64,000 nucleotides of DNA from Clostridia bacterium (GTDB lineage: Bacteria; Bacillota; Clostridia; Oscillospirales; Acutalibacteraceae), in contig JAGAMO010000009.1 of assembly GCA_017624675.1 (NCBI GenBank), positions 62,001 to 126,000 of the forward strand. The letters are read 5' to 3'. The notes below the pieces were generated by a model that was not told the origin of the DNA, searched no databases, and worked only from the letters and a program-made list of their open reading frames with translations. Below, in pieces: positions 54,143-56,474 of this stretch. Made by a program: the position numbers and the translations under genes. The first letter of the stretch is position 1; each line of letters begins with the position of its first letter.

Positions 54143-55411
54143 ATGAATATTGCTTTTTATACCTTGGGCTGCAAGGTTAATCAATATGAAACACAAAGCC
54201 TTAGAGAGCTTTTTGTAAACAGGGGTCATAATGTGGTTTCCCACCGTGATAATTTTGACTGTATTGTTGTTAATTCCTGCACGGTTACCGCCGAAAGTGA
54301 CCGCAAAACCCGTCAGCTTTTAAATCGTTTCCGCCGTGAAAACCCAAAAGCCTTAATTGTGCTGACAGGCTGTATGGCTCAAGTTTTAAAGGACACATCT
54401 AACATTAATGCAGATATTATAACGGGTAACACCGATTTGGAAAAACTCGTAGACTTAGCCGAAAAGGGCGAAAAGACAAATCAAATCGAGCCCCACACAA
54501 GAGACGAGGTCTTTAACACACCCCTAATTTCAGATTTTGCCGAGAGAACAAGGGCATATCTTAAAATTGAGGACGGATGTGAGAGATACTGCACCTACTG
54601 TATGATTCCCTATGCCAGAGGTTTTGTTCGTTCAAAGCCTTTGGATGACATTAAAAAAGAGGCTTCAAACCTTGCTTTAAAGGGTTTTAAGGAGATTGTT
54701 CTTGTTGGAATTAATCTTTCGGCTTACGGCAAGGGCGAGGATATTAACCTTTGCGATGCGGTAGACGCTGTGTGCAGTATTAACGGCATTAAAAGGGTGC
54801 GTTTAGGTTCCCTTGAGCCCGACCATATAAGCGACGAAATGCTCACCCGCTTTTCGCAACAAGAAAAGTTTTGCCCCCAATTCCATCTATCTTTACAATC
54901 AGGTAGCGACAGTGTGCTTAAAAGAATGAACAGACATTATGATTCGACATTTTATGAGGATTTAGTAAACAGAATCCGCAAAATTTTCCCCGATGCCGCA
55001 ATTTCTACCGATATTATGGTGGGCTTCCCCGCCGAAACCGAAGAAGAATTTGAAGAAAGCCTTACATTTGCCGAAAAAATCGGCTTTGCAAAAACCCACG
55101 TTTTTGCTTATTCAAGGCGTGCGGGAACAGTTGCCGACAAGATGGATTTTCAAATTTCAAACGCCAAAAAAACTGAACGCAGTCAAAAAATGATAAAGAC
55201 AACCCTTAAAAGCGAGGCAGATTTCCTCAATTCCTTAATAGGTCAAACGCTTGAGGTTTTATTTGAAACCGAGGAAGACGGCAAATGGGTGGGTTACACT
55301 AAAAATTACGCCCGAGTGGAAACCACCTCAAAAGAAAACCTTAGCGGCAAACTTAAAAAAGTTAAAATAAATTTTGCCTCGGGCGAGACGGTTGAGGGTG
55401 AAATAGTATGA
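54143..55411 (+). CDS. mtaB: tRNA methylthiotransferase MtaB
   Basis: This 422-residue radical-SAM enzyme has an N-terminal UPF0004 domain with three cysteines (LGCKVNQYE, VVNSCTVT and LTGCMAQ), the radical-SAM motif DGCERYCTYCMIPYARG near residue 147 (Cys-x3-Cys-x2-Cys) and a C-terminal TRAM-like domain. It converts N6-threonylcarbamoyladenosine-37 to its 2-methylthio form in tRNAs reading ANN codons. AGGAGA precedes the ATG. It overlaps thiN by 4 bases. The N-terminal GCKVNQYET pattern separates it from MiaB. Confidence 0.94.
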   Translation: MNIAFYTLGCKVNQYETQSLRELFVNRGHNVVSHRDNFDCIVVNSCTVTAESDRKTRQLLNRFRRENPKALIVLTGCMAQVLKDTSNINADIITGNTDLEKLVDLAEKGEKTNQIEPHTRDEVFNTPLISDFAERTRAYLKIEDGCERYCTYCMIPYARGFVRSKPLDDIKKEASNLALKGFKEIVLVGINLSAYGKGEDINLCDAVDAVCSINGIKRVRLGSLEPDHISDEMLTRFSQQEKFCPQFHLSLQSGSDSVLKRMNRHYDSTFYEDLVNRIRKIFPDAAISTDIMVGFPAETEEEFEESLTFAEKIGFAKTHVFAYSRRAGTVADKMDFQISNAKKTERSQKMIKTTLKSEADFLNSLIGQTLEVLFETEEDGKWVGYTKNYARVETTSKENLSGKLKKVKINFASGETVEGEIV

Positions 55412-56049
55412 GTATATGCTATATTTTTGGTTCCGCTTTGGGAGAACCTGACTCTTTTACACCAAAAAACAATGACCTTGTGATAGCCGCCGATGCAGGT
55501 TACCTGAAACTTAAAAATTTGGGAGTCACACCCGATTTAGCGGTGGGTGATTTTGATTCCTTAGGAGAAATTCCAACCGACACCGAGGTTGTAAAACACC
55601 CTGTAAAAAAAGATGATACCGACACACTTTTGGCGATAAAAATCGGAATAGAAAAAGGCTTTAGGGAGTTTCATTTTTACGGTTGCACCGGAAACCGCTT
55701 AGACCACACGCTAGGTGCTTTGCAAAACCTTTCATTTTTAGCTGAAAGAGGCTGCCGCGGTTACTTGTTTGGCGAGGATTTTATTGCAACGGCCATTAAA
55801 GATGACAGTTTGGAGTTCGGCGAAGAAAGAAAGGGCAACATTTCGGTTTTTGCCGCAACAAGCGAATGCGAAGTGTCGATAGACGGGCTTTTATACACCA
55901 CAGAAAACAAAAAAATCACCTATGATTTTCCCATAGGTGTCAGCAACGAATTTATAGGCAAAAAAGCCAAAATCACTGCCCACAAGGGAACAGCAATTAT
56001 AATGGTTATGATTAGTCGAAACAATAATGTTTCGACACAAAATCTTTGA
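55408..56049 (+). CDS. thiN: Thiamine pyrophosphokinase
   Basis: This 213-residue enzyme has VIAADAGYLKLKNLGVTPDLAVGDFDSLG near residue 25, HPVKKDDTDTLLAIKIGIEKG near 63 and FYGCTGNRLDHTLGALQNL near 90. All are signature segments of ThiN, which makes thiamine pyrophosphate from thiamine and ATP. It overlaps mtaB by 4 bases in an ATGA junction. The family usually ends near GTAIIMVM; here about eleven extra residues follow, all encoded within the first hairpins of a repeated palindromic element, so the C terminus was probably altered by insertion of that element. Confidence 0.93.
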   Translation: MSICYIFGSALGEPDSFTPKNNDLVIAADAGYLKLKNLGVTPDLAVGDFDSLGEIPTDTEVVKHPVKKDDTDTLLAIKIGIEKGFREFHFYGCTGNRLDHTLGALQNLSFLAERGCRGYLFGEDFIATAIKDDSLEFGEERKGNISVFAATSECEVSIDGLLYTTENKKITYDFPIGVSNEFIGKKAKITAHKGTAIIMVMISRNNNVSTQNL

Positions 56050-56182
56050 TTTTGCAACAAATTTCTTTTGAAATTTGTTCATATCCATTGCAATGAGTGT
56101 TGTGCAAAATTGAATTTATAAATTCGATTTTGCCAAATCCACTTGTAAAGTGGATTGTCGAAGCGCTTTTTCGCGTTTCGAC
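56015..56182 (+). repeat. Chain of seven consecutive hairpins (novel palindromic element)
   Basis: Seven adjacent inverted repeats fill 168 bases. Stem arms are at 56015-22/29-36 (GTCGAAAC), 56038-44/48-54 (CAAAATC), 56056-65/70-79 (AACAAATTTC), the palindrome 56086-95 (CATTGCAATG), 56104-18/19-33 (15 bp, one G-T), 56136-44/48-56 (AATCCACTT) and 56157-66/73-82 (GTCGAAGCGC, one G-T). The element begins and ends with GTCGAA/TTCGAC. Almost every base can pair, so it is far from random AT-rich sequence. No long ORF exists inside. It resembles a dispersed palindromic repeat or structured RNA, and I do not recognise a known family. Confidence 0.8.
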
Positions 56183-56212
56183 AAACTACAATCATTATAA
56201 TTTATAAAAGAT

Positions 56213-56238
56213 AAAACCACCCAAAAGGGTGGTTTTTT
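56213..56238. terminator. Bidirectional terminator between thiN and khpA
   Basis: AAAACCACCC pairs with GGGTGGTTTT around AAAA, with a T run on the plus side and A-rich sequence on the other, between convergent transcripts. Confidence 0.85.
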
Positions 56239-56240
56239 AA

Positions 56241-56474
56241 TTAATCAATCTCAACCGAAACGGTTTCATTTTTTCTGGTGGCGGCGGCACGCATTACAAC
56301 ACGTATAGCGTTGGCAATTCTGCCCTGCTTTCCGATAACACGGCCCATATCACCCTCAGCAACGTGAAGATGGTAAACTGTAACGCCTTCCTCATTGGGC
56401 TCGTCAACAGTAACCTCTACAGCCTCAGGATTTTCAACCAAACCCGAAGCCAAAGATACTAAAAGTTCTTTCAT
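56241..56474 (-). CDS. khpA: RNA-binding protein KhpA (YlqC, KH domain)
   Basis: This 77-residue single KH-domain protein has YHLHVAEGDMGRVIGKQGRIANAIRVVMRAAA, which contains the canonical GxxG loop as GKQG. It pairs with KhpB (gene at 1.2 kb) as a heterodimer in other Firmicutes. It is the last gene of the conserved ylxM-ffh-rpsP-khpA operon, 21 bases after rpsP. Confidence 0.94.
   Translation of the reverse strand: MKELLVSLASGLVENPEAVEVTVDEPNEEGVTVYHLHVAEGDMGRVIGKQGRIANAIRVVMRAAATRKNETVSVEID

What the first reader, a model, noticed from the sequence alone, without database searches (positions are those of the whole stretch)
56015..56182. Seven back-to-back hairpins in 168 bp: an unrecognised palindromic element
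Seven consecutive inverted repeats with stems of 7-15 bp (one of them the loopless palindrome CATTGCAATG) follow one another with almost no unpaired spacer. The block starts and ends with the same GTCGAA/TTCGAC arms. Such density is not expected from AT-rich intergenic DNA and is not explained by the separate terminator at 56213-56238. It could be a dispersed non-autonomous element (MITE or REP type), a structured regulatory RNA, or a recombination target. I do not recognise a named family with this order of hairpins.
Basis: seen in the sequence. Interest (0 to 1): 0.78.

Follow-up and report, generated by a model that had tools for sequence, protein, structure and literature searches.

The report
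Double-cloverleaf mobile DNA element
A 200-letter stretch of DNA that carries no gene and can fold into two cloverleaf shapes has spread around the genomes of gut bacteria, and the folded shape is kept even in relatives whose letters have largely changed.

Summary
It is one copy (55999-56198) of a dispersed mobile element: 14 near full-length copies in this 1.58-Mb genome and 92 more collected from other Clostridia assemblies. It is not seven hairpins in a row but two domains, each a closing stem around three hairpins; 42 of 77 pairs changed on both sides. The loopless CATTGCAATG is not a supported hairpin; its halves belong to the two closing stems. Pairing is strand-symmetric (91 G-T vs 91 A-C cells), pointing to folded DNA rather than one RNA. 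Ends are imperfect inverted repeats; targets prefer TT-AT-AA, with AT on both sides in 99 of 103 copies. Empty sites, one inside a coding frame, show mobility. Single-domain and 54-bp relatives exist. The 3+3 architecture recurs in distant elements in other families and one other order. No mover was found: IS630-type DDE_3 0 of 70 genomes, IS30 not in this genome, a REP-type transposase present but not linked. Best reading: a MITE-like, trans-mobilised element; a new variant of a known kind.

The parts
55999..56198 (+). whole element (200 bp), one copy of the family
   Evidence: borders from the alignment of 14 own-genome copies with flanks; profile match 55999-56198
55999..56022 (+). left terminal inverted repeat (24 bp), begins with the flanking AT
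   Evidence: pattern match C1:117999-118022, contig offset 62000
56175..56198 (-). right terminal inverted repeat (24 bp), ends with the flanking AT
   Evidence: pattern match C1:118175-118198
56000..56090 (.). left domain: closing stem 56000-56011 with 56079-56090 around three hairpins
   Evidence: fold; helix 1: 8 of 10 pairs changed on both sides
56015..56036 (.). hairpin 1 (9 pairs, arms GTCGAAACA/TGTTTCGAC)
   Evidence: (helix 2: 5 of 9 pairs changed on both sides)
56038..56054 (.). hairpin 2 (7 pairs)
   Evidence: (helix 3: 3 of 7)
56057..56078 (.). hairpin 3 (9 pairs)
   Evidence: (helix 4: 4 of 9)
56092..56196 (.). right domain: closing stem 56092-56103 with 56185-56196 around three hairpins
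   Evidence: fold; helix 5: 4 of 10 pairs changed on both sides
56104..56133 (.). hairpin 4 (13 pairs)
   Evidence: (helix 6: 9 of 13)
56136..56156 (.). hairpin 5 (9 pairs); the window copy carries a GC to TA double change against the own-genome consensus
   Evidence: (helix 7: 3 of 9)
56157..56182 (.). hairpin 6 (10 pairs)
   Evidence: (helix 8: 6 of 10)
55408..56049 (+). thiamine pyrophosphokinase gene (PF04263, PF04265, TIGR01378) whose frame now ends inside the element
   Evidence: the G014 relative ends differently

Best explanation
It is a copy of a non-autonomous DNA mobile element of MITE type, built as a tandem dimer of two cloverleaf modules (a closing stem plus three hairpins each). 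Shown: many dispersed copies, sharp ends, presence/absence between relatives, AT on both sides where an interrupted reading frame fits only one, a TT-AT-AA target preference that is independent on the two sides, and stems kept by compensatory change. Inferred: a transposase encoded elsewhere recognises the ends, probably folded as extruded or single-stranded DNA, cuts the target with a 2-bp stagger and inserts the element, duplicating AT. Single modules can move alone; two modules joined through a 2-bp seam (CATT-NN-AATG) move as one unit, and insertion beside an existing end gives tandem copies that share AT. The six hairpins are inferred to matter as DNA, as substrate or protein-binding scaffold, not as a transcript.
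For: 14 near full-length copies with unrelated flanks in this genome. Empty orthologous sites: L157 for L067, G095 for L152, and an uninterrupted thiamine pyrophosphokinase end in G014 for the window copy (left side only). Copy L065 interrupts a REP-type transposase frame that continues into the conserved motif only with the element and one AT left out. Same two bases on both sides in 100 of 103 copies, AT in 99 of 103. TT and AA preferences are independent (Fisher p 0.83, 95 copies), as for a two-fold symmetric target. Covariation of the two-domain fold; strand symmetry; no orientation bias. Modules of 52-64, 107, 126 and 160 bp with the same ends. Stem divergence 3.3% vs 17.4% unpaired among own copies. 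3+3 fold in 9 of 11 distant elements tested, the window copy being one of the 2 misses when its halves are folded alone.
Against: No transposase was found: no own-genome end pair encloses one (ORFs between three neighbouring-copy pairs were not transposases); DDE_3 0 of 70; IS30 absent from G000. Empty-site flanks are only about 71-75% identical, so the duplication rests mainly on one frame (L065) and on the AT statistics. G-T/A-C symmetry is indirect and was not calibrated on known RNAs. Shuffle controls ignore relatedness. Distant elements keep weak sequence similarity (z 2.2-9.5), so shape-only conservation is not proved.
Confidence: 0.65

Rival explanations
1. REP/REPIN-like element moved by a RAYT (REP-associated HUH tyrosine transposase) through single-stranded hairpins, without target duplication.
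For: Multi-hairpin ends; RAYT-like gene in G000 205 bp from copy C27 (NCBIfam REP_Tyr_transpos E 2e-17 but 63.4 bits against a cut-off of 80); Y1_Tnp matches in 49 of 70 same-genus genomes.
Against: 0 of 40 RAYT-type loci and 0 of 20 stronger Y1 loci carry an element within 300 bp; the other close case (L065) is a copy inserted into the gene. TT and AA are enriched on both sides and independent, not one-sided as I would expect for an HUH tetranucleotide target (recalled).
Confidence: 0.13
2. The stems are kept perfect by mutation, not selection: arms of a hairpin are copied onto each other (template switching), so covariation is a by-product in a passive MITE.
For: Strand symmetry; loops vary (17.4%) while stems stay (3.3%) and 15 of 18 doubly changed pairs are Watson-Crick in own copies, though several are shared by copies; loop reversals: reverse-complement pairs 23, complement 17, reverse 10, only suggestive.
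Against: It explains perfect stems but not why three hairpins per domain and the closing stems persist in distant elements, nor double changes in closing stems whose arms lie about 70-80 nt apart.
Confidence: 0.17
3. A mobile structured RNA: the copies are transcribed and the RNA fold acts in gene regulation or in movement through RNA.
For: Strong covariation; many copies lie close to gene starts or ends; copy L152 sits between a conserved -10-like box and the ribosome site region.
Against: G-T and A-C cells equal; both orientations equally common, 23 vs 24; no Rfam match.
Confidence: 0.08
4. Ordinary AT-rich intergenic palindromes or terminators.
For: The region lies between convergent genes next to a terminator.
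Against: z -12, multicopy with sharp ends, covariation.
Confidence: 0.01

Closest known systems
Bacterial MITEs in general (RUP, NEMIS, Bcr1, ERIC, YPAL, Nezha, EFAR; listed in PMC3733652, passages seen)
   Same: Size 70-300 bp, 15-30 bp inverted ends, no coding capacity, dispersed next to genes, robust secondary structure
   Different: Two closed three-hairpin domains with covariation; no parent insertion sequence found
bcr1 of the Bacillus cereus group (cited in PMC3733652 and PMC2267715, passages seen; original paper not held)
   Same: About 150-170 bp, low-GC Firmicutes, mobile, folded (size 147-167 in PMC2267715)
   Different: A 5-bp TTTAT duplication is recalled for bcr1, from no call; here a shared 5-bp word occurs in 2 of 103 copies. 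No sequence comparison was made
REP/REPIN with RAYT (PMC3116915, PMC2817692: search listings only; PMC3733652 passages)
   Same: Palindromic, dispersed, hairpin ends, RAYT-like genes in the same genomes
   Different: REPs are 20-40 bp; here 200 bp with end repeats, and RAYT genes are not linked to copies
IS30 insertion sequences (PMC9333248, passages seen)
   Same: 2-bp target duplication, preference for hot spots and for sites beside its own ends, tandem dimers as active forms: a working model for AT-sharing tandem copies and the dimeric build
   Different: No IS30 transposase in G000; 9 of 70 same-genus genomes have a match; the repeats found around five of six IS30 loci examined do not resemble the element's ends, and none was found around the sixth

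Membership tests
MITE | 70-300 bp, dispersed in many copies | tested here: met
   200 bp, 14 near full-length copies
MITE | Terminal inverted repeats of 15-30 bp | tested here: met
   Imperfect 24-bp repeats at both ends
MITE | No coding capacity | tested here: met
   No ORF of 60 aa or more lies within 55999-56198; the two that overlap it extend outside
MITE | Target-site duplication | tested here: inconclusive
   AT on both sides in 99 of 103 copies, one frame fits only one AT; an AT carried by the element end cannot be fully excluded
MITE | Ends shared with an autonomous insertion sequence that can move it | tested here: not met
   None found in G000 or in the loci scanned; genomes were not searched exhaustively, so filed as MITE-like, not as derived from a known insertion sequence
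REP/REPIN-RAYT | Unit of 20-40 bp with a conserved GTAG or CGTC tag | tested here: not met
   200 bp; end repeat ATAATG(R)TT(R)T(R)(R)TT(W)GTCGAAAC varies at the GTAG-like position
REP/REPIN-RAYT | Linkage to RAYT genes | tested here: not met
   0 of 40 and 0 of 20 loci within 300 bp; one RAYT-like gene 205 bp from copy C27
Rfam families | Score at or above gathering | tested here: not met
   Window 55800-56400: best 31.3 bits against 57; 12 loci of relatives: only an unrelated tRNA in L039
IS630/mariner-derived | Resident DDE_3 transposase | tested here: not met
   0 of 70 same-genus genomes at E 0.001 or better
IS30-derived | Resident IS30 transposase with like ends | tested here: not met
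   Not in G000; ends unlike where found
bcr1 | Sequence similarity to bcr1 | not tested
   No bcr1 sequence was fetched

The most novel reading that the evidence does not exclude
A superfamily of mobile elements defined by folded DNA shape more than by sequence: two four-way-junction cloverleaves (three hairpins each) in tandem, recognised as folded DNA by a still unknown enzyme that inserts them at TT-AT-AA. Hairpin sequences turn over freely while the 3+3 architecture, the ends and the 2-bp seam persist across families and at least one other order of Clostridia.
Probability: 0.35. Interest if true: 0.85.

Novelty: new variant of a known kind. Interest (0 to 1): 0.6.

Why it matters
Covariation is normally taken as proof of a functional RNA. 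Here it appears strand-symmetrically in a mobile DNA element, with the same architecture in elements that share little sequence. If the shape is the substrate, these elements would be a natural test bed for DNA recognition by fold, and covariation pipelines would need a strand-symmetry check before calling such motifs RNAs. They are also a widespread, unannotated source of insertions next to genes in gut Clostridia: the copy in this window displaces the native end of a thiamine pyrophosphokinase gene, as judged from one relative.

Tried and rejected
Loopless hairpin CATTGCAATG: rejected. Pairing of the two ends with each other as the conserved outer stem: 6 of 16 pairs changed on both sides, 112 of 500 shuffles reach that, although cells paired and the covariation score exceed all shuffles; the inner arms fit better. 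TA duplication of the mariner kind: rejected because seams between tandem copies read CATT-AT-AATG/AACG and DDE_3 is absent. IS30 as resident mover: not found in G000. RAYT: I first concluded that G000 lacks any Y1 transposase; some searches showed that was wrong; the association test then failed to link RAYT genes to the element. Recurrent gene next to copies: among the top 25 clusters shown, judged by eye, the only transposase cluster was the RAYT one (three loci). ORFs between neighbouring inverted copies in L032, L060 and L202: no transposase; those in L063, L164 and L177 were only looked at. Phage carriage: one viral contig with one end pattern, not followed. Loop inversion as proof of DNA hairpin activity: reverse-complement 23, complement 17, reverse 10 distinct pairs, only suggestive; the first version (21, 0, 1) was biased by paired loop-closing bases and is discarded. 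Frame-spanning test over 87 copies: my script mishandled stops at the junction; discarded. Promoter/terminator scan, composition profile, structure prediction and a search with the L129 flanks were not run. Literature: nine searches listed no description of this element in the titles and abstract starts that I saw; one search was swamped by rumen ecology papers; most subscription papers are not held.

Rows dropped: L135 (cut by a contig end, empty row) from the 107 rows; non-Clostridia hits of the end pattern (11 loci, listed in the script); 8 rows with an element-like right neighbour; G099 (E 8e-4, sequence unlike the element) and G812 (flanks nearly the same as those of G003 locus L011, so probably contamination) from the taxon range.

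Full report
Observation. The stretch 56000-56250 folds at -92.1 kcal/mol against -42.05 (sd 4.16) for 200 shuffles; the reverse strand is nearly as strong. So the hairpins are real. Their description changes once copies are compared.

It is one copy of a dispersed repeat. A search of the window's own genome (1.58 Mb, 41 contigs, 96.7% complete) returned 24 match rows, 14 of which cover at least 179 of the 186 query bases at 83-100% identity. Aligned with their flanks, the 14 copies are alike from ATAATG to CATTAT and unrelated outside, which sets the element at 55999-56198. Its ends are imperfect 24-bp inverted repeats. The same genome also holds a 54-bp single-hairpin relative (C31), a shortened copy (C13) and a 207-bp element at C35 with the same build but almost no sequence similarity in its core.

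Relatives. 19 of 60 genomes have a match, own genome included, so 18 of 59 others. The end pattern with up to two mismatches occurs in 30 of 61 genomes, own included; the reversed pattern in 6 of 61. From the fetched sequences I took 107 full-length rows, 14 of them own and one empty, so 106 usable, 75 below 95% identity.

Structure. On 66 aligned copies (A1) the fold with two closed domains of three hairpins has 93.3% of cells paired, 42 of 77 pairs changed on both sides (19.6 in shuffles) and 245 doubly changed cells (68 in shuffles); no shuffle of 500 reaches any measure and every slid version is far lower. These shuffles ignore relatedness, as the tool warns. The closing stem of the left domain joins the left end to the bases up to CATTG (8 of 10 pairs changed on both sides). 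Pairing of the two ends with each other and the loopless palindrome are much weaker. Folded alone, 64 of 66 left halves and 58 of 66 right halves are closed with three hairpins, against 2 of 132 mononucleotide-shuffled halves. The window's own right half does not come out closed with three hairpins when folded alone, although it does in full length.

Which strand, DNA or RNA. If one transcript were selected, G-U pairs should be tolerated and A-C mismatches not. Both occur in 91 cells when alignment pair 77-82 is left out (117 and 91 with it). In same-direction gene pairs, copies lie 23 times with and 24 times against the genes; of 83 copies 47 lie between same-direction, 30 between divergent and 6 between convergent genes (a simple ORF rule). 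This favours a role as DNA, but is indirect.

Constraint inside one genome. In the 14 own copies stems differ from the consensus at 3.3% of sites and unpaired positions at 17.4%; 18 pair cells are changed on both sides (15 Watson-Crick) where 1.2 are expected from independent change, and 35 on one side only. Five of the 18 are one change shared by five copies and two another shared by two, so events are fewer than cells. Either copies keep being selected, or hairpin arms are copied onto each other.

Insertion. The same two bases flank 100 of 103 copies and no longer shared word is common; they are AT in 99. The outer neighbours prefer TT and AA (0.82/0.82 and 0.73/0.74 against 0.31 background), and the two sides are independent (Fisher p 0.83; 15 of 95 copies have neither, 15.8 expected). 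Empty orthologous sites: L157 for L067 and G095 for L152, with flanks of about 73-75% identity; for the window copy, G014 (71%) has an uninterrupted gene end, but only the left flank could be compared. Copy L065 lies inside a REP-type transposase frame that continues into the conserved motif only with the element and one AT left out. In the window the insertion displaces the last codons of a thiamine pyrophosphokinase gene, judged from G014.

Modules. Elements with the same ends but 52-64 bp (single hairpin; 13 distinct loci), 107 bp, 126 bp and 160 bp exist; the 107- and 126-bp ones look like the left and right domain alone. Tandem copies share AT at the seam (seven rows: L165, L170, L177, L194, L202, L204, L214; also G057 and G077). 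The inner seam of the standard element has the same layout with GC in place of AT. I read the element as two modules fixed as a dimer; this is inference.

Range. With model R1, 12 of 394 genomes of the order match; without own genome and the doubtful G099 these are 10 genomes in 8 listed families, own family included. In the class 3 of 391 match: own, G635 (another order, six matches) and G812, probably contamination. Only six candidates per genome were scored and filters were strict, so these are lower bounds. Of 11 elements tested one by one, 9 fold as 3+3 closed at the best of the candidate seams; G181 is 3+1 with its left half not closed, and the window misses by the half-fold noted above. 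Core identity of the other ten to the window copy is 0.57-0.68 against 0.52-0.59 for shuffles (z 2.2-9.5; the C35 element 0.61 vs 0.58, z 2.4), so several are distant relatives rather than unrelated.

What moves it. No end pair enclosing a transposase was found in G000 or in the loci scanned; the wide pairs seen are ends of neighbouring copies or weak matches. DDE_3 (IS630) is absent from all 70 same-genus genomes at E 0.001. IS30 occurs in 9 of 70, not G000, and the repeats found around those loci differ. A RAYT-like gene is present in G000, 205 bp from copy C27, but 0 of 40 RAYT-type loci and 0 of 20 stronger Y1 loci have an element within 300 bp and the two-sided target does not fit. IS30 is still the best working model for the 2-bp target, insertion beside its own ends and dimers (PMC9333248, passages).

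Known kinds. By the MITE features listed in PMC3733652 (passages) it meets size, ends, absence of coding and dispersal, and probably target duplication; a parent element is missing. It matches no Rfam family at gathering score. The nine literature searches named in Tried and rejected listed no description of a double-cloverleaf element. I therefore call it a new variant of a known kind.

Noticed in passing
L264 about 1791-1998 (G000:C35:3291-3498): A 207-bp element with the same ends, CATTGCAATT seam and 3+3 fold but almost no core similarity to the window copy, in the same genome.
   Followed up: partly
L037 3395-3880 (G000:C27): RAYT-like (REP-associated tyrosine transposase) gene 205 bp from element copy C27; no REP partner of its own was identified.
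   Followed up: partly
L032 2993-4472 (G000:C38:31683-33162): Two inverted element copies 1.1 kb apart flank a 350-aa ORF without a Pfam match, a composite-transposon-like layout.
   Followed up: partly
L131, L133, L150, L154, L156, L166, L173, L174, L178, L191, L207, L224: Contigs of several assemblies stop about 135-150 bp into the element, so these genomes probably hold further near-identical copies that broke the assembly.
   Followed up: no
L086 2926-3135: One copy has GT instead of AT on both sides, which would fit a true duplication of the target; a single case.
   Followed up: no
L262 1982-2004 (viral contig IMGVR_UViG_3300021958_000210): A single end-pattern match in one viral contig, possibly chance.
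   Followed up: no
L321 798-998 (G812:C105): Element with flanks nearly identical to those in G003 (L011) although G812 is in another family of the class: probably contamination of that assembly.
   Followed up: partly
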